From Myxococcales bacterium (lineage in GTDB: Bacteria; Myxococcota_A; Polyangia; Polyangiales; Polyangiaceae), in contig PMCK01000588.1 of NCBI GenBank assembly GCA_003154095.1, positions 1-37,725 of the forward strand: a stretch of DNA of 37,725 nucleotides, written 5' to 3'. The position numbers were made by a program, and so were the translations under genes. This document shows, one piece after another, positions 1,541 through 37,725 of this stretch. Every line of letters begins with the position of its first letter. Positions within the stretch are counted from its first letter, which is position 1. Under the pieces are notes generated by a model, which was not told the origin of the DNA, did not search any database, and saw nothing but the letters and a program-made list of their open reading frames with translations.

Positions 1541-4500
1541 ATGTTAAACGACATTAAGACGAGCACTAAGTTACTATTCGGATTTGGTTTGGCCATTGCA
1601 GTCACGCTCATTATTGGAATTGTTGGGCGGCAGGCCCTTGTGACGGCAAGCGAACATATGGACGACATCGGCAAGAATCGAATGCCGAGTCTTTATGGCG
1701 TTCAAGAAATGATTGCGGGCCAGCTGCATGTGGCGGCTGGGCAACGCGGATTGGTCAATCGCCGAATGATGGAACATGGCGTGCGCCAAGGAAACTACGA
1801 CGAAATTGCCACGGGTCTTCGCCAGGCCGCAGACGGCCGAAAGGTTTACGAGGCTTTGCCCATGGCCCCGGAGGAGCAGCGCATCTGGTCGAGCTTCGTG
1901 CCTCGCTGGGACGAATGGCAACGAAATGTTCAAAGTACCGTTGATATCGAAAAGGAGAAGGATGCGCTGCTCAGCAGCGGCGCCAAGGGGGATGACCCGC
2001 GTGTCACCCAAATTGACGACAAGGCGATGGAATTCATGAGCCGCGCCCGTGACGCCCGCAGCGAATCCAACAAGGCACTTGCAGACATTGCTCGTCTCAA
2101 CAATGACTTCGGCAAAACCGCAGTTCAGCAATCCGAGGCCGCGGCATCGAAGAACATTTCGGTGATGCTGACAGCGATGTTCATTGGATCAATGATTGCC
2201 GCCGTAGTGGGGTTGTCAATTGCTCGCAGCATCAAGAACGCGCTGGACGCATTGCACCGCGAAGCCACGCGACTCGCGCAAGCTGCCGTGGCCGGACAAC
2301 TGGCAACCCGGGCCGATGTAATGGTGGTACCCGCAGAATTCCGGGGTATCGTCCAGGGTGTAAATGACACATTGGACGCTGTGATCAACCCATTGAATGT
2401 GGCTGCAGACTACGTGGACAAGATTTCCAAGGGTGATATCCCGCCCAAGATTACCGATACGTACAATGGTGACTTCAATGTAATCAAGGGCAACCTCAAT
2501 AAATGCATCGATTCACTGAGTGGGCTTCTCGGGACCATGTCCACCATGTATGAGGCCCAAAGGGCAGGAGACATCGAAGCATATGTCGACGTGACTCAAT
2601 TCCAAGGAGCCTACCGACAGCTAGCGCAGGGGGTCAACGACGGTGTCAAGTCAATCATAGACAACACCCTGACCATTTTGGACACAGTATCTTCCTACTC
2701 CGAAGGTGATTTCACGCCCGTTATGAGAAGACTGCCGGGTAAGCAGGTCGTCGCCAACGAGCGCATGGACAAATTGCGCCAGAACTTGATGGCGCTCGTC
2801 GCTGATGCCAAAGTTCTTTCAATTGCAGCAGTCGAGGGCAAATTGGCCGTTCGCGCCGATGCGTCCAAACATCAAGGCGACTACCGCAAGATCGTGCAGG
2901 GCGTCAACGAGACGCTGGATGCAGTCATTGGCCCGCTGAACGTGGCCGCCAACTATGTCGATCGGATTTCCAAAGGTGAAGTCCCCGCGAAGATTACCGA
3001 CAACTATAACGGTGACTTCAACGTCATCAAGAATAACCTGAACCAGCTCGTCAATAACCTCAATCAGCTCGTTGATGATATGGGTGTCATGTCCAAGCAA
3101 CATGATGCGGGTGACATCGACGTCAAGATCCCCGAAGAAAGATTCGAAGGCGCCTACCGCGTCATGGCCAAGGGCGTCAATGACATGGTGTTCGGCCATA
3201 TTGCCGTCAAGAAGAAGGCCATGGCCTGCCTGGCCGAGTTTGCTGCCGGCAATTTCGACGCGCCGCTCGAGAAATTCCCGGGCAAGAAGGTGTTTATCAA
3301 TGAGAACATCGAACTGTTGCGCCGAAACAGTAAGGCGCTCGTCACTGATGCCATCATGCTCTCAAAGGCTGCCGTTGAAGGGAAATTGGCTACCCGTGCC
3401 GACGCCTCAAAGCATCAGGGCGACTTCAGGAAGATCGTTCAAGGCGTCAATGAAACTTTGGACGCGGTTATCGGCCCGCTCAATGTGTCGGCTGACTACG
3501 TGGACAAGATCTCCAAGGGCAGTATCCCAGCAAAGATCACAGACACGTATAACGGTGACTTCAACACAATCAAGAACAACCTGAATCAGTGCATTGATGC
3601 GGTCAACAATATGGTTGCAGACGCGGGACTCCTTGCTAAGGCTGCCGTCGAAGGCAAGTTGGCTACCCGTGCCGATGCCTCCAAGCATCAAGGCGACTAC
3701 CGTAAAATCGTACAAGGCGTCAATGAAACACTCGACGCGGTTATCGGTCCGCTCAATGTCTCCGCTGACTATGTCGACAAGATCTCCAAGGGTAATATTC
3801 CCGAGCGAATCACCGACACGTACAATGGCGACTTCAACACTATCAAGAACAACCTGAACAAGTGCATCGACGCCGTAAACAGGATGGCTGGTGACGCCAC
3901 CATGTTGGCCAAGGCTGCTGTAGAAGGCAAGCTTGCGACCCGTGCGGACGCGACCAAACATGAAGGCGACTTTCGCAAGATCGTTCAAGGTGTCAATGAG
4001 ACGTTGGATGCAGTCATCGGTCCGCTCAATGTCTCGGCCGATTATGTGGACAAGATCTCCAGAGGCAATATTCCTCCCAAGATCACGGACAGCTACAATG
4101 GTGACTTCAATACAATCAAAAATAACCTGAACAGGTGCGTCGATGCTGTAAATTCTCTTGTAGCTGACACCGAAACACTTGTAAGGGCGTCTATTGAAGG
4201 CAAACTATCAACGCGTGCCGACGCCTCCAAGCATGAAGGCGACTACCGGAGGATTGTCGATGGTGTCAATAAGACGCTAGACGCCGTAATTGCGCCGGTC
4301 ATGGAAGCCGCAGGTGCCCTCGAAACTCTGGCACGCTACGACCTGCGAGCCCGTGTCACTGGCGATTACCAGGGCGATCACGCTCGAATCAAGGACGCCC
4401 TCAACGGTACTGCCAAGGCACTGCAAGATGCACTCAGTCAGGTGGCTGATGCGGTCGAACAGGTCTCAGAGGCATCACAGCAGATTGCAGGTTCAAGCCA

Positions 4501-5410
4501 AGCCGTGTCTCAAGGCGCTTCAGAACAGGCGAGTTCACTTGAAGAAACGTCAAGCAGCCTAGAGGAAATGGCCGGCATGACCAAGCAGAACGCCGATAAT
4601 ACGATACAGGCACGCTCGTTGGCTCAGACAACCAAGGAAGCCGCTGAAAAGGGCGGTACGGCCATGATTCGCATGACCGACGCGATGGAAAAGATCCGCG
4701 CTGCTTCCCAGGGCACGGCTGACATTATCAAGGACATCAACGAGATCGCGTTCCAAACGAATCTCTTGGCGCTCAACGCGGCGGTCGAAGCCGCCAGGGC
4801 CGGCGACGCAGGGCGTGGCTTTGCGGTGGTCGCTGAAGAAGTCCGTAACTTGGCGCTGCGCTCGAAGGAAGCAGCCAAGAAGACCGAAGACCTCATCAAG
4901 GTAGCGGTCGGTCATGCCGAGAATGGTCGAGTCATCACGAATGAAGTTGCTGGCAGTCTCACTGAGATTGTGACGGCCGCAGCCAAAGTCAACGACATCG
5001 TCAGTGAAATCGCCGTTGCCAGTCAGGAACAGTCACGTGGAATCGAGCAAGTCAACACTGCGGTTGCCGAGATGGACAAGGTCGTGCAAACCGCCGCGTC
5101 CAACGCAGAAGAGTCGTCAAGTGCGGCTGAAGAGTTGGCGAGTCAGTCTGAAGAGCTGTCTAGCCTCGTTCAGCGCTTCGAACTCGACCGGGACAACCGA
5201 ACAGCGTCACGGCGTCATGCTCCCGCCGCCAAAGAAGCCGCATCGCCACGCCGAGCTGCGATGCACCCCGCCACAATTCCGCCACCCAGGCGCGGAGCCG
5301 TTATTGTGAACCGTGCCAAGAGGCCCAACGGCGCCAACGGCACGACGCACAAACCAAGCCCCGAGGATCTAATCCCGCTAGAAAAGGACCCGGAATTCCA
5401 GGACTTTTAG
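1541..5410 (+). CDS. Transmembrane chemoreceptor (MCP) with a long tandem HAMP array and a C-terminal pentapeptide
   Basis: A 1289-aa membrane receptor. TM1 lies at about residues 11-30 and TM2 at about 206-226, bracketing a periplasmic region of about 175 residues that looks like a four-helix bundle. Residues of about 240-965 form a chain of HAMP-type modules with recurring [24 protein letters not shown] and DKISKG..P.KITD elements. Units begin 543 bp apart at first (2282, 2825, 3368) and then exactly 273 bp apart (3368, 3641, 3914, 4187). The signalling hairpin has its tip around residues 1065-1105 ([21 protein letters not shown]). A basic, proline-rich linker then runs to the final EFQDF, which fits the aromatic pentapeptide pattern used to tether CheR/CheB. 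cheR starts just downstream. The ligand cannot be read from the sequence. Confidence 0.95.
3368..4186 (+). repeat. Three exact-length 273-bp in-frame tandem repeats coding HAMP modules
   Basis: Units start at 3368, 3641 and 3914, and a partly diverged fourth starts at 4187. Each encodes 91 residues beginning [12 protein letters not shown]. Earlier related units start at 2282 and 2825 with twice-length spacing (543 bp, 181 codons). Neighbouring copies are nearly identical in protein but differ at many third codon positions, so they are old duplications under protein-level constraint rather than an assembly artefact. Confidence 0.9.
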
Positions 5411-31322: not shown

Positions 31323-32030
31323 TTGCCCATGGCAATTGAGAGGTCCGCTTTCGACGTGACTGGGAAATCAAAACGACGAACATTTACGGCAGAATACAAG
31401 AAGCGGATCTTGCAACAGGCCGAAGTGTGCAAGGAAACTGGTCGACTAGGCGCATTACTGCGCAACGAGGGCCTGTACGCATCGCATATTGCGAATTGGC
31501 GCACACAAGCAGTATCGACAATGCTGGGCGCGCTTGCTCCAAAGAGGCGAGGCCCGCCGAAGGACTTGGTTGCCGGGCATGTTCGCGCGCTAGCGGAAAA
31601 AGACCGCGCGATTGCCCAGTGGAAACGACGCGCGCTACGCGCCGAGGCGCTCGTCAAGGTCCAAAGAACAAGACTGTCAGACGCTCGGGACGGCATTGCC
31701 ATGAGCGCTAAACTCGACTTGAAAAGCTCTGTTCATGCGGCAGCGACGGAACTCGGGGTATCTTCAACCTGCGCAGCTTTGGGCGTGTCTCGATCAACGT
31801 ACTATCGAGAACTCGCACCCAAGCAAGGTCCCAAGCAGCGGCGACGTTCACTGCGGAGGCTGTCGGATGCAGAACGCCAAGTCGTATTGAATGCACTGAA
31901 CGAAGATCGTTTCATTGGCCTCTCACCAGCTGCAATTCACGCAAAGATGTTGGGAGAAGGGCGATACCTTTGTTCCGTGCGCACCATACATCGAATATTG
32001 GCAGAGCAAGCGACAGCCAACAAAGATTAA
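31323..32030 (+). pseudogene. Truncated IS3-family transposase (OrfA plus start of OrfB)
   Basis: A 235-aa open frame. Residues of about 17-60 (RRTFTAEYKKRILQQAEVC, then ALLRNEGLYASHIANWR) are the helix-turn-helix OrfA region of IS3-type transposases. The middle part is a basic coiled segment. From about 145 the OrfB N-terminus appears (AALGVSRSTYYREL, then FIGLSPAAIHAKMLGEGRYLCSVRTIHRILAEQ). The protein stops right there; the DDE catalytic core that should follow is absent, and the next 157 bp to the right inverted repeat do not encode it. OrfA-like and OrfB-like parts are in one frame without frameshifting. It is classed as a non-functional remnant. Confidence 0.8.
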
Positions 32031-32330: not shown

Positions 32331-34313
32331 ATGACCACCACAAGCAATCTTTCAACAAACGGTAAACGTAGACCTGGCGACCGAGCTTTAGCTGCTCCCA
32401 AGGACAACGCGAGCAAACAAGACGTCACGGCTACCGTAGGAGCTGACATCCAACAAGATCGTTTGGCAGCACGTCGCATGGCGGAGGAAAAGGTCCGCGC
32501 CCGCACGTTGGCACGCTCTCAGGCCGTTGCCGAAAAGCTTGCCTCTGCAACTTCACAGGTTTCGTCCGCAATTACCGAGGCATCCGGCGCGATTCACGAA
32601 CTCGAAAAGACGATGCAACAGATCGCGACCGGTGCCAACGAAGCGGCGTCCGCAGCCGAGGAATCACGTTCGGCGGTCAACCAGATTGAGAAATCTGCAA
32701 TAATGGCGGCGAAAAACGCCGACGTATCTATGAAGTCGGTCAACGCCCTGCAAGAACTGGCAAAAGAGACCTCCAACGACATTGCGAAACTAATTCAAGG
32801 GGTTGGCGAAAGCGCCCAAGCCAACATCGAATCTGCCAGTAAACTTGCGGAGCTCGAAAAGCTTTCGGACGAAATCGGCAAGATCGTGCATGCGGTAGCC
32901 CGCATTGCGGATCAGACCAACTTACTGGCCCTCAATGCTGCCATCGAGGCGGCACGAGCAGGTGAACATGGCAAGGGTTTTGCCGTAGTAGCTGACGAAG
33001 TGCGCAACCTCGCAGAGTTGAGCGAAAAGAGCGCACGTGGCATTCAAGAGGTGATAAACGAAATTCAAGGCCAGGTGAAGGTAGTCGCTGCCGACACCGA
33101 AATGGCAGGCCGCAAGGCAGCCGAAGAAGTCGAAAAGGCCAAGGTTATCACCCGCGACCTCGAACAGGTTGGGCGCGAAATGAGTGAAATCCAGAAGGCC
33201 TGCGAAGTCATTGGTGTCAATGCGAGCCAGTCTGCCAGTGGGGCCAAAGAATACCTCGCCGGAGCTGAGCAGATTGCGTCGGCGGCCGAAGAGGCTTCTT
33301 CCGCCTGTGAAGAATCACTGCGCTCAGTGCAGGAGCAATCCAAAGCCTACAACGAGATGTCAGACGCTGCCAGTTCCATGTCTGAGCTAGCAGAGGATCT
33401 TAAGACCTCGACCAACGCGCAGAAATCTGCGGAAGAACTAGCGGCTTCAGCCGAGGAGCTCTCAACCAACTCCGATGAGGTGAAGGCGTCCGCGAGCCAG
33501 ATCGCAACGGCCATTGAGCAGATTCAAAAGGCTGCCGGGATTCAGGGCAAATTGGCCGAAAAATCGCGCGACCTTGGGCAGCAGCTGCAACTTGCGACCC
33601 GCGGCATGGCCGATCGAGCTACTGAGAGTACGGAAAAGGGCAATCGGATCAAGGACGTTCTTACCACGAACAAAGTCAACGTGGACGCAGTTATTGCCAA
33701 CGTTAACGCAGCTGCCCAAGCTGCCGTGACCTCTGCCAAAAACGTAAAGGAACTCGAGGAACGGACGCGACGCATCGACAAAATTGTCGACGCCATCGTC
33801 ATGGTGACGGTTCAAACCAACATGCTTGCCGTCAACGGCAACGTCGAAGCGGCGCGTGCCGGTGAGTACGGCCGTGGCTTTTCCGTGGTGGCAGGCGACA
33901 TCCGTGCTCTGTCCAATGAAAGCAGCGAAAACGCTGACCGGATCAAGGATCTGGTGCGCCAAGTCCAGTCCCAGATCACCAAGGTGGCGGCTGACATTGA
34001 GCTCGCCGGGAAAACTGCCCTGGCTGAAGGAGAGCGAGCCAAGGTTTCCACTGAGAATCTGACACGTATCGCAATTGACGTGGACAAGGCGCTAGTCGCT
34101 ATTCAAGAAGTCATGACGGGGGCGCAGGAGTCGGCAACGGCGATTGAGCAAGCCGGCAAGGCTGCAGAACAGATCGGCGCGGCTGCGCAACAGATGTCCC
34201 GTTCCACCATCGAGGGCGCCAGCGCCGCCGAAGAGGCGGCCAAAGCCGCCCAAGAAATTGCACAAGCCATCGAAGAGATTGCCTCACAAGCCGACGACCT
34301 GCAACACGGTTGA
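32331..34313 (+). CDS. Soluble chemoreceptor with two signalling tips in one chain
   Basis: A 660-aa cytoplasmic protein from the ATG at 32331 (AGGAG six nt upstream; the 41 codons upstream in frame are not used). After a basic disordered N-terminus (about 1-50) it is almost entirely long coiled coil, with no PAS, HAMP or membrane segment. Two MCP hairpin tips are present about 300 residues apart. Tip 1, residues 187-222, is canonical ([20 protein letters not shown]). Tip 2, residues 486-522, is modified ([20 protein letters not shown]). The helices before and after each tip repeat QAA/SAAEEA-type methylation-like runs. A single chain could thus contribute two signalling hairpins, one perhaps with altered kinase control. 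The triple-CheW gene begins 29 bp later and is a likely partner. Confidence 0.92.
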
Positions 34314-34342: not shown

Positions 34343-36196
34343 ATGGCAAATGCAAATGTGCTCGCGAGCGAGCAACTGGAAGAAAGTCAACTCGTTACCT
34401 TTTACTTAGGTAACGAGGAGTTCGGATTCGACATCATGTCCGTGCAAGAAATCATCAGACAGCCCACGCTGTCGAGGATCCCGATGGCCCCCGAATACGT
34501 CGAAGGTATCGCCAATCTGCGCGGAACTGTCCTGCCCATCATCGACACGCGAACTCGCTTCGGCATGAAGCGAGAGGCCGATACGGACCATACCCGGGTA
34601 CTGGTCGTGGACGTGGACGGCGTAAAGACGGGCCTGCGCGTCGATCGTGTTCGTCAGGTCACGCGGATCACGCGAGGCGACATCGAGGCGTCCCCAGCCG
34701 TTATCAAGAACGGAATGAGCACCGACTACTTGCAGGGAGTCGTCAAGCTCGAACAAGGCAAGCGAATTATCATGTCCCTTAGCCCGGCGGCCATCTGCAA
34801 GATTGAATCGAAGGGCGCGCTGAACCAAGCCATTCAATCTTCCCATCTCGAACTTGCGGGTGCAAGCGAGACGAAGACGGCAAAGTCTGGGGATTCCAGT
34901 GATCAGACATTGGCCCAATTAGTGTCGTTCAAGCTTGGCGACGAAGAGTTTGCGTTTCCCATGGAACGGGTGCGTGAAATTCTTCGCGTCCAGCGGCCCA
35001 ACGAAGTTCCCGATACGCCCAAGCACTTCCTGGGCATTCTTACGGTACGTGGAAACATCCTGCCAGTCATCGATCTCCGGCTATTGCTGAACCTCAGTGA
35101 CATGGCGGGCGACGTCGAGAGTTTGGCTCAAAATGCGTACGATACCTACGCGCGCTGGTTGACAGCGATGCCAAGCTACGTTGAAGAATCAGGCAACCAC
35201 ACCGCACTAGTGCAAGGCGCCGAAGCATTGCGGACCTGGGTAGCTGCGTTTGCAACCTCAAGTGAGCTCCTCATGGGTACGCTGGGCGCCATTCGATTGG
35301 CCAATGACAAGGTACTGCGGGCCATTCAGCAATTGCAAACCTGCAACAACCGTGAGGCGAGGCTTGCAAATTGCAAACAGGAAGTCGAGCCGCATGCTCA
35401 AGAGGCTCTACGCCAAATGCTTACGTTCAAGCAGCAAGTGCGTGAATGCATCCGTGAAGACCAGCGGCTGATTGTCGTACAGACGGGGAGCGCCCTGCTC
35501 GCCTTGCTAGTCGATCAGGTCAAGGAGGTTTTGACCGTACCAACGCGACTCATCGATCCACCGCCACAACTGGGTAGTCAGAAAAATCTAGAAATTCAGG
35601 GAGTGGCGCGGCTCAATGATGGCAAGCGACTGATCATGCTCTTGGACTCCGATCATCTGGTAGAAGGGCAAACCAAGGAAGCCCTGAAAAAGGCCGGAGC
35701 CCTTGGAACGGTTGTAGAGGCAGCCGGCCTCGACTTGAAGCACGCACAAGAGTCGGCAAGTTCCCTCGGCGAACGTCAATTCGTGACATTCCAGCTCGCC
35801 GATGGCGAATACGGAATTCCAATCAACGAGATTCAAGAAATTGACCGCTCCTCGCGGATGACCCGCATTCCCAAGTCCGCCGAACATGTCGACGGAATTA
35901 CCAACCTTCGAGGCGAGGTAGTCCCAGTTATCAATGCTCGCAAGCGCTTCAATCTTCCCATGAAGGAAACCGACGAGCGGACGCGCGTTATCATCATTGA
36001 CGTGGACGGGAAGAAGACCGGGCTGTTGGTGGATTCGGTCCGGGAAGTCCTTAACCTAGCGACCAAAGACATCGCTCCGCCCCCGGCCACCATCTCCTCC
36101 GCGATAGACCAGCAGTACATCTCCGGAATCGGAAAGGTGGACAGCGGCAAACGCATGATCGTCCTACTCAATGTAACCAAGGTCGTCGAAAGCTGA
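34343..36196 (+). CDS. cheW: Triple-CheW scaffold protein with a helical insert in the second CheW domain
   Basis: A 617-aa protein from the ATG at 34343 (AGGAGA eight nt upstream); an ATG at 34310 overlaps the MCP stop but has no such site. CheW domain 1 is at about 15-153, domain 2 at 192-442, and domain 3 at 477-614. Each has the VREI/VQEI, LRG..LPVID and LLVD.V.EVL signatures. Domain 2 is split after VIDLRLLLNL by a helix-rich insert of about 120 residues (253-373), then resumes with RLIVVQTGSALLALLVD. The insert has the spacing of a CZB (chemoreceptor zinc-binding) domain: YARWL, LRTWV and ANDKVLRAI in place of H..W, C.LG.W and H..vH. The zinc-binding His and Cys residues are replaced. 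The likely role is a multivalent adaptor linking several receptor or CheA P5 domains. Confidence 0.92.
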   Translation: MANANVLASEQLEESQLVTFYLGNEEFGFDIMSVQEIIRQPTLSRIPMAPEYVEGIANLRGTVLPIIDTRTRFGMKREADTDHTRVLVVDVDGVKTGLRVDRVRQVTRITRGDIEASPAVIKNGMSTDYLQGVVKLEQGKRIIMSLSPAAICKIESKGALNQAIQSSHLELAGASETKTAKSGDSSDQTLAQLVSFKLGDEEFAFPMERVREILRVQRPNEVPDTPKHFLGILTVRGNILPVIDLRLLLNLSDMAGDVESLAQNAYDTYARWLTAMPSYVEESGNHTALVQGAEALRTWVAAFATSSELLMGTLGAIRLANDKVLRAIQQLQTCNNREARLANCKQEVEPHAQEALRQMLTFKQQVRECIREDQRLIVVQTGSALLALLVDQVKEVLTVPTRLIDPPPQLGSQKNLEIQGVARLNDGKRLIMLLDSDHLVEGQTKEALKKAGALGTVVEAAGLDLKHAQESASSLGERQFVTFQLADGEYGIPINEIQEIDRSSRMTRIPKSAEHVDGITNLRGEVVPVINARKRFNLPMKETDERTRVIIIDVDGKKTGLLVDSVREVLNLATKDIAPPPATISSAIDQQYISGIGKVDSGKRMIVLLNVTKVVES

Positions 36197-36212: not shown

Positions 36213-37289
36213 ATGTCGAAAAGAGTCCGGGTGTTGGCCGTAGACGACTCGGCGCTGATGCGTCGAACTCTGCGTAGAATAATCGAGGCCGACCCCGAGC
36301 TCGAGCTCTTGGACACCGCGCGCGATGGTGCAGATGCCATTGCCAAAGCGCGAGAACTGCGCCCAGACGTCATGTCCATGGATATCAATATGCCCAAATT
36401 GGACGGCATTTCCGCCCTGCAGATACTGCTCGCTGAAGAGATCTGCCCGGTAGTAATGCTGTCCAGCTTGACGCAAAAAGGTGCCACGACGACTTTCGAA
36501 GCACTGGAGTTAGGCGCCTTCGACTACGTGGCAAAGCCCGACGGCACGGTATCGGACCTCGGTGTCGTGGCCAAGGAACTCTGTCTCAAGCTCAAGGCTG
36601 CCGCAAAGTCGGGAACTCTGCGTCGCCTGCGAGGGCACCATCGGCACGGCCAAGCTCGAACGCGTGCGCAGGCGCCGGCTAGACCCGAGGCATCGCGGTC
36701 AACCAAAACTATTGCTCACGGCACATTCAAAGCAGTAGCCATCGGGATTTCAACGGGCGGGCCCTCAACGATTCAGGAAGTACTTCCCAAGATCCCCGCT
36801 GACAGGAACGCCGCCGTCTTCCTAGTGCAGCACATGCCAGCGTCATTCACGGCCACGTTTGCTCGCAGACTCGACGAGAGTTGTTCGTTGACAGTGGTGG
36901 AGACGAGCGCAGGGATGGAAGTGGAGCCGGGATATTGTTACGTGAGTCGCGGAGGCCTGCATTTGGTGCTGTATCGAAACGGCGTCGGCAAGGTGATGAT
37001 CCGTACACCAAGCACACCTGAAACACTATTTAGACCTTCGGTGAATGTAATGATGGAGTCAGTGTTGAATACATACGGTCGCGACACCATCGGTGTACTC
37101 ATGACCGGTATCGGAGACGATGGCGCCGATCAAATGGTGCAAATCAAGCAAAAGGGTGGTTACACAATTGCCGAAAGCGAGGAGAGTGCCGTCGTTTTTG
37201 GCATGCCGCGCGAAGCCATAGAGCGCGGGGGAGCCTGTGAGATTCGCCCCAGCTGGGAGGTCGCTGAAGCGATCCTCAAAAGGCTATAG
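36213..37289 (+). CDS. cheB: Receptor methylesterase/deamidase CheB
   Basis: A 358-aa CheB. The receiver has VDDSALMRR, acceptor Asp in MDINMPKLDG, SSLT and VAKPDG. A long basic His/Arg-rich linker (about 130-165) leads to the esterase domain, with Ser in IGISTGG, His in VQHMPASF and Asp in MTGIGDDGADQM. The GIGDDG motif and DINMP acceptor mark it as the most divergent of the four CheBs here. It starts 17 bp after the triple-CheW gene (AAGAGG site upstream), so it belongs to cluster IV. A HEAT-repeat gene follows after 8 bp. No cheR of this cluster is in view. Confidence 0.95.
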   Translation: MSKRVRVLAVDDSALMRRTLRRIIEADPELELLDTARDGADAIAKARELRPDVMSMDINMPKLDGISALQILLAEEICPVVMLSSLTQKGATTTFEALELGAFDYVAKPDGTVSDLGVVAKELCLKLKAAAKSGTLRRLRGHHRHGQARTRAQAPARPEASRSTKTIAHGTFKAVAIGISTGGPSTIQEVLPKIPADRNAAVFLVQHMPASFTATFARRLDESCSLTVVETSAGMEVEPGYCYVSRGGLHLVLYRNGVGKVMIRTPSTPETLFRPSVNVMMESVLNTYGRDTIGVLMTGIGDDGADQMVQIKQKGGYTIAESEESAVVFGMPREAIERGGACEIRPSWEVAEAILKRL

Positions 37290-37297
37290 GTTACACT

Positions 37298-37725
37298 ATG
37301 ATACAAGAGAGCAGTATTCGAGCACGACTTTGGGACGAAGACGAGTCCGTGCGAGCCTTAGCCGCGGAGGACGCCGGTTATGACGACCTGGCCGAAGCCA
37401 TCGGTCCACTCTGTGAGCGGTTGACCCTGGAGCCTTCGCGCTCAATGCGTCAGACCATTATGGCCGCGCTGCTCCGCATGACGCACCTGGATGTCATCGA
37501 GCCAGCATTGGCACTATTTGACAGTGAAGACGTCTTCATTCGCAATTCGGCGGTCTCATTGCTGCAGGCCAAGGGCCAAGCTGCGTTACGTGGCCTTGAG
37601 CGACGCTTCGCTAGCTCCGATCCGGATATACGAAAGTTGGTCCTGGACACGCTATCGGCAATCGGAGGCGACAAAGCGGAAGGGTTGCTGGCTCGCGGCC
37701 TGCGGGATCCCGATCTCAATGTCCA
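37298..37725 (+). CDS. HEAT-repeat protein, 5' part (runs off the window)
   Basis: Translation from the ATG at 37298 stays open for 142 codons to the window edge. It consists of repeated helical pairs of HEAT type: RALAAEDAGYDDLAEAI, then MRQTIMAALLRMTHLDVIEPAL, IRNSAVSLLQAKGQAALRGL, and IRKLVLDTLSAIGGDKAEGLL. The D-P/S-D-x-x-[IV]-R turns are typical of HEAT/PBS-lyase-like repeats. Such proteins bind partners and have no enzymatic signature. It follows cheB after 8 bp and so is probably co-transcribed. I have seen HEAT-repeat genes beside che genes in deltaproteobacterial-type clusters (recollection, not checked). The ribosome site is weak. Its C-terminus is unknown. Confidence 0.85.
   Translation, partial: MIQESSIRARLWDEDESVRALAAEDAGYDDLAEAIGPLCERLTLEPSRSMRQTIMAALLRMTHLDVIEPALALFDSEDVFIRNSAVSLLQAKGQAALRGLERRFASSDPDIRKLVLDTLSAIGGDKAEGLLARGLRDPDLNV

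What the first reader, a model, noticed from the sequence alone, without database searches (positions are those of the whole stretch)
34343..36196. Triple-CheW protein whose second CheW is split by a CZB-like domain that has lost its zinc ligands
Three CheW domains occur in one chain. Domain 2 is interrupted by about 120 helical residues (253-373) with CZB-like spacing, but Asn/Leu/Tyr/Ala replace the usual His and Cys. It sits directly after the dual-tip receptor, so a multi-valent adaptor may have co-evolved with a multi-tip receptor.
Basis: partly seen in the sequence, partly recalled or inferred. Interest (0 to 1): 0.7.

Follow-up and report, generated by a model that had tools for sequence, protein, structure and literature searches.

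The report
Triple chemotaxis adaptor with nested bundle
A myxobacterial lake genome carries the known partner pair of a two-headed chemoreceptor and a triple CheW adaptor, but here a small helical sensor-type domain that has lost its zinc-holding residues sits inside the middle CheW, a variant I did not find described.

Summary
The gene at 34343-36196 encodes 617 residues with three CheW domains. The second is split at CheW model position ~71 by ~119 residues (254-372) that AlphaFold2 folds as a confident four-helix bundle (pLDDT 88).

The insert is probably a CZB (chemoreceptor zinc-binding) derivative. Single CheW proteins of the same phylum carry intact CZBs at exactly the same loop, with 4/4 zinc ligands in 9/9. 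The four triple-CheW orthologs have 0/4. Sequence support for the bare insert is modest (profile-profile E 0.002, 0/300 shuffles as good).

The "dual-tip receptor plus triple CheW" pairing is real but already known. It is the signature DosM + CheW3 of the F9 chemosensory class, which builds two-layer cytoplasmic arrays in Vibrio cholerae. In 377 phylum genomes the same six hold both, adjacent wherever the contig allows. Tip spacing is 299-300 residues throughout.

F9 CheW3s normally lack the insert. A tree of insert-free domains places domain 2 with insertless CheW3 domain 2, so the bundle was gained secondarily. It occurs complete in four MAGs from three families, with a possible fifth, truncated case.

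Most likely it is a zinc-independent input or docking module on the F9 baseplate. Novelty: new variant of a known kind.

The parts
34343..36196 (+). CheW3-type triple-CheW adaptor gene, 617 aa
   Evidence: ORF and Pfam CheW E 2.6e-104; AGGAG upstream
34379..34822 (+). CheW domain 1 (residues 13-160)
   Evidence: CheW HMM
34910..35101 (+). CheW domain 2, first half (residues 190-253)
   Evidence: HMM positions 4-71
35102..35458 (+). Nested four-helix bundle, CZB-like, zinc ligands lost (residues 254-372)
   Evidence: AF2 model pLDDT 88; alignment to intact nested CZBs; hhalign; tblastn across the insert E 1.4e-17
35459..35680 (+). CheW domain 2, second half (residues 373-446)
   Evidence: HMM positions 71-148
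35771..36193 (+). CheW domain 3 (residues 477-617)
32331..34313 (+). DosM-type cytosolic receptor with two signalling tips 300 residues apart, no other Pfam domain above its cut-off
36213..37289 (+). CheB methylesterase with receiver domain
   Evidence: Pfam E 1.6e-55
37298..37723 (+). HEAT-repeat protein, cut by the contig end; the same position holds a HEAT protein in the two G006 F9 loci

Best explanation
This is the CheW3 adaptor of an F9-class (DosM-type) cytoplasmic chemosensory system, found in a few myxobacterial MAGs. In an ancestor of these a CZB-type four-helix bundle was inserted into the loop between the two halves of CheW domain 2. This is the same loop in which separate CheW-CZB proteins carry a zinc-binding CZB. 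The bundle then lost all four zinc ligands. Mechanism (inferred): the three CheW domains still bind receptor tips and CheA in the two opposing baseplates spanned by DosM, while the bundle projects from the middle CheW and acts as a zinc-independent input or docking module. Its most conserved face is the former zinc and Cys-motif region, which now carries invariant Arg297, Arg318, Asp322, Arg326, Gln329 and Gln330. Binding of a ligand or partner there would shift CheW2 and so kinase control. Shown: domain layout, nested position, predicted fold, ligand loss, F9 gene context, derived insertion. Inferred: CZB origin (likely), binding face, effect on the kinase.
For: F9 context: a CheW3 profile and a dual-tip receptor profile hit the same six of 377 phylum genomes, side by side where contigs allow; tip-to-tip distance 299-300 residues in 13 receptors of this phylum and of the class of G489; gene order DosM-CheW3-CheB-HEAT then CheR/CheA or STAS/CheA in relatives. 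CZB origin: nine single CheWs carry nested CZBs at the same CheW position (HMM ~67-75) with H, C, H, H invariant; L092 matches PF13682 at 8.5e-14; an L092 query aligns through the window's insert (E 1.4e-17); hhalign 4.8e-5 with flanks, 0.0018 without, 0/300 column shuffles as good. Derived insertion: the D2 shell groups with insertless CheW3 D2 (93/82; 96/83 with L043_D2), not with CheW-CZB. Conserved face: helices 2/3 and 4 are 57% and 51% identical versus 34% in helix 1, the dimer helix of true CZBs. Constraint: insert dN 0.50 lies between D1/D3 (0.12-0.14) and linkers (1.0-1.3), window versus L041.
Against: Pfam CZB is not matched even at E 10. Foldseek and VIA list generic four-helix bundles, with the zinc CZB 3T9O not among the shown rows. 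Helical receptor segments score up to 20.7 against the same CZB profile versus 23.2 for the insert, a narrow margin. Only four complete insert sequences exist, so invariant residues are weak evidence of a site. No binding or signalling datum exists.
Confidence: 0.5

Rival explanations
1. The bundle is a structural element: it dimerises or packs between neighbouring CheW3 chains and stiffens or spaces the F9 baseplate, with no sensory role.
For: CZB domains are dimers through helix 1 (PMC8262984); DosM and CheW3 are thought able to form arrays without F9-CheA (PMC9321776); the insert evolves faster than CheW, as a loosely constrained scaffold might.
Against: Helix 1, the dimer helix in true CZBs, is poorly conserved (34%) while the former zinc region is best conserved.
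Confidence: 0.27
2. Decaying relic: a former zinc/redox sensor that lost its ligands and is now neutral filler tolerated by a permissive loop.
For: Fast divergence (28-56% identity), linker-like dN/dS of 0.8-1.1 in two pairs; all four ligands lost.
Against: Kept in frame and near-constant length (128-130 residues as aligned) in four species of three families; predicted with high confidence to fold; best conservation sits at the old functional face.
Confidence: 0.15
3. The bundle is unrelated to CZB: an independent helical insertion at a tolerant CheW loop.
For: No Pfam CZB hit; weak profile score for the bare insert and similar scores for receptor coiled coils; Foldseek sees only generic bundles. 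Insertions in CheW domains occur elsewhere (PMC10782961).
Against: Identical insertion site and size, retained Trp after the first ligand site and retained Leu-x-x-Trp motif, spacing 27 and 4 between the last ex-ligand positions as in DgcZ; 3t9o is the top PDB hit of the joint profile, though that profile includes true CZBs.
Confidence: 0.14

Closest known systems
F9-class chemosensory system with DosM (VC1403) and concatenated triple CheW (VC1402), Vibrio cholerae (PMC7534058, PMC9321776)
   Same: Dual signalling-domain cytosolic receptor next to a triple-CheW gene, with CheB next; receptor tips 299-300 residues apart in all homologs measured here
   Different: The window's CheW3 carries a nested four-helix bundle in domain 2; none of the eight near-full-length CheW3 genes from the sampled class of G489 does
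CheW-CZB proteins (Perkins 2021, PMC8262984; 1.4% of CZB proteins)
   Same: A CZB-type bundle associated with CheW; in the nine examples of this phylum read here it is nested at the same loop of CheW
   Different: Those are single CheWs with intact 3His/1Cys; the window's has three CheWs and none of the ligands
CheWS / CheW-CheRlike of spirochetes (PMC10653840, PMC7666581)
   Same: A CheW fused to a domain whose original catalytic or ligand residues changed, proposed to feed signals through the adaptor
   Different: CheR-like domain at the C-terminus, not a nested helical bundle; F2 class, not F9

Membership tests
F9 chemosensory class (DosM/CheW3) | Receptor with two signalling domains in tandem, usually no sensory domain | tested here: met
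   Two tips, 300 residues apart, only MCPsignal above cut-off
F9 chemosensory class (DosM/CheW3) | Adaptor with three concatenated CheW domains encoded next to the receptor | tested here: met
F9 chemosensory class (DosM/CheW3) | CheA of the F9 phylogenetic class in the cluster | not tested
   The window's contig ends after the HEAT gene; relatives have a CheA downstream but its class was not typed
F9 chemosensory class (DosM/CheW3) | Two-layer cytoplasmic array spanned by DosM | not testable with these tools
   Needs cryo-tomography
CZB domain (PF13682) | 3His/1Cys zinc core | tested here: not met
   0 of 4 ligands in four orthologs, 4 of 4 in nine nested CZBs
CZB domain (PF13682) | CX(L/F)GXW(Y/L) motif | tested here: not met
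   Reads EALRTWV in the window: Leu and Trp kept, Cys and Gly lost
CZB domain (PF13682) | Match to the family model | tested here: not met
   No PF13682 hit at E 10, control L092 hits at 8.5e-14
CZB domain (PF13682) | Four-helix bundle of CZB topology | tested here: inconclusive
   Four-helix bundle predicted, but 3T9O not among the listed fold matches
CZB domain (PF13682) | Common ancestry with CZBs | tested here: inconclusive
   Same insertion site and motif remnants; hhalign 0.0018 for the bare insert

The most novel reading that the evidence does not exclude
A zinc sensor domain was transplanted into the adaptor of a two-layer cytoplasmic array and re-tooled, by replacing its metal site with a conserved Arg/Asp/Gln pocket, into a sensor for a different ligand. 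Signals would then enter the F9 array through the adaptor, helping to explain how arrays whose DosM receptors lack sensory domains receive input.
Probability: 0.25. Interest if true: 0.65.

Novelty: new variant of a known kind. Interest (0 to 1): 0.42.

Why it matters
DosM homologs nearly all lack sensory domains (98%, PMC9321776) and the stimulus of F9 arrays is unknown. An F9 adaptor with its own sensor-derived domain offers one testable route for signal input. It is also a clear natural case of a metal sensor fold kept after loss of its metal site, with intact relatives at the same insertion point for comparison.

Tried and rejected
Pfam and NCBIfam searches for CZB in the full protein, and Pfam for the bare insert: no hit. 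A single-sequence HMM test of the insert against intact CZBs gave 6.3 bits against a shuffle maximum of 9.3, so it is not significant alone. Foldseek and VIA-align returned generic four-helix bundles, and a CZB structure was not listed; this does not exclude the fold. The idea that domain 2 came in as a whole CheW-CZB was disfavoured by the tree, with the caution that CheW-CZB rows have long branches. The missing half of the truncated G223 gene was not found in its assembly. The original DosM paper (PMC5027440) is not held.

Full report
The gene and its domains. The reading frame 34343-36196 starts at an ATG shortly after AGGAG and encodes 617 residues. Pfam sees only CheW above its cut-off, in four stretches, because the second domain is split. 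A CheW HMM places domain 1 at 13-160, domain 2 at 190-257 plus 371-446, and domain 3 at 477-617; the two halves of domain 2 meet at HMM position 71. All three domains keep the Glu and Arg of the CheW salt bridge described for E. coli E38-R62 (PMC3828127), invariant in eight sequences.

The insert. Residues 254-372 fold on prediction into a four-helix bundle (helices 2-32, 38-52, 59-83 and 88-122 of a 130-residue construct; pLDDT 88.2, pTM 0.83, alignment of four sequences). In the larger domain-2 construct the insert is again the confident part, while the CheW halves are poorly modelled there, probably for want of sequences.

What the insert comes from. A search hit in the same bacterial family, L092, is a 275-residue single CheW with an intact CZB (PF13682, E 8.5e-14) nested in the same loop. 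A phylum-wide search with it found further such proteins and also aligned right through the window's insert (E 1.4e-17) and that of G006 (E 1.8e-12). Nine nested CZBs keep His, Cys, His, His without exception and are split at about the same CheW position. Aligned with them, the four triple-CheW inserts have Tyr or Phe, Glu/Asp/Ala or a gap, Asn or Gly, and Leu or Asp at the ligand sites; no Cys or His is conserved among the four. The Trp three residues after the first site, and the Leu/Val-x-x-Trp of the Cys motif, remain.

How sure the CZB origin is. Profile-profile comparison gives E 4.8e-5 with the CheW flanks and 0.0018 for the bare core. None of 300 column shuffles and not the reversed alignment reach it, but receptor coiled-coil segments come close (20.7 against 23.2). 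The best PDB hit of a joint profile is the E. coli DgcZ CZB 3t9o (E 0.0023), although that profile includes true CZBs. Fold searches are uninformative, since many four-helix bundles match. I put CZB origin at about 85%, resting mainly on the shared insertion site, size and motif remnants.

The surroundings. Directly upstream is a 660-residue cytosolic receptor with two signalling tips, downstream CheB and a HEAT-repeat protein. A profile of the dual-tip receptor hits six of 377 phylum genomes at E 1e-70. A triple-CheW profile gives near-full-length hits in five of them and a truncated one in the sixth, G223. Where contigs allow, the genes are neighbours in the order receptor-CheW3. By my own arithmetic, identical sets of six in 377 have a chance of about 3e-13 if independent. 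In 369 further genomes, of the class of G489, eight near-full-length CheW3 genes were found; six sit directly after a dual-tip receptor, one lies near a contig end, and in one no receptor was detected nearby. Tip spacing is 299 or 300 residues in every receptor with both tips measurable.

Comparison with the known. This is the signature of the F9 class: DosM with double signalling domains and an adaptor of three concatenated CheWs, VC1403 and VC1402 in V. cholerae, where DosM spans the two baseplates of a cytoplasmic array (PMC7534058; PMC9321776). CheW-CZB is also a published architecture (PMC8262984; PMC10653840). I found no report of a CZB-type domain inside CheW3.

How the variant arose. 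Insertless CheW3 is the rule: L038, L039, L040, L043, L066 and the eight of the other class. G006 carries one CheW3 with the insert and a second without. In a tree of CheW domains with inserts cut out, the split domain 2 groups with insertless CheW3 domain 2 (93/82, and 96/83 with L043) rather than with CheW-CZB shells; long branches among the CheW-CZB rows call for caution. The insert was therefore most likely gained within F9 CheW3. It is complete in four MAGs of three families of the order: the window, G006, G477 and G475, the last three corresponding by contig number to L042, L041 and L044. G223, from elsewhere in the phylum, breaks off at exactly the insertion point with a helix-like sequence and may be a further case.

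Mechanism. Between window and L041 the insert has dN 0.50, against 0.12-0.14 in domains 1 and 3 and 1.0-1.3 in linkers: constrained, but loosely. Helices 2/3 and 4, the former zinc region, are best conserved (57% and 51% mean identity, with invariant R297, R318, D322, R326, Q329 and Q330); helix 1, the dimer helix in true CZBs, is not (34%). This favours a binding face at the old metal site over a dimer staple, on four sequences only. I commit to a zinc-independent input or docking module at 0.5, a structural role at 0.27 and a relic at 0.15. The unrelated-origin rival (0.14) concerns descent and overlaps with these.

Limits. The contig ends about 1.5 kb after the gene, so the window's own F9 CheA is unseen. 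Only four complete insert sequences were available, and metagenome collections could not be scanned.

Noticed in passing
G223:C366 (L128) 2396-3119: Truncated CheW3 after a DosM in another family of the phylum breaks off at the insertion point of domain 2 with LGMPPLATEAESLAEAL, which looks like the start of a CZB-type helix; possibly an F9 CheW3 with a nested CZB outside this order.
   Followed up: partly
L092, L093-L095, L097-L099, L101, L112: Single CheW proteins with intact zinc-binding CZB nested between the two CheW halves; two consecutive ones in G166:C27.
   Followed up: yes
L038 and L037 (G006): One genome holds two F9 clusters, one CheW3 with and one without the nested bundle; both have a HEAT-repeat gene after CheB, also present at the end of the window.
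   Followed up: partly
31323-32030: Transposase-like ORF (HTH_32, E 1e-6, below cut-off) between the HDOD gene and the DosM-type receptor, apparently a partial insertion element.
   Followed up: no
1541-5410: 1289-residue receptor with a long chain of HAMP_2 repeats (6 stretches, E 9e-194) before a single signalling domain.
   Followed up: no
32331-34310 and homologs in L037, L038, L040, L044, L124, L128, L160-L164, L166: Distance between the two tips of DosM-type receptors is 299-300 residues in every case, in this phylum and in the class of G489.
   Followed up: partly
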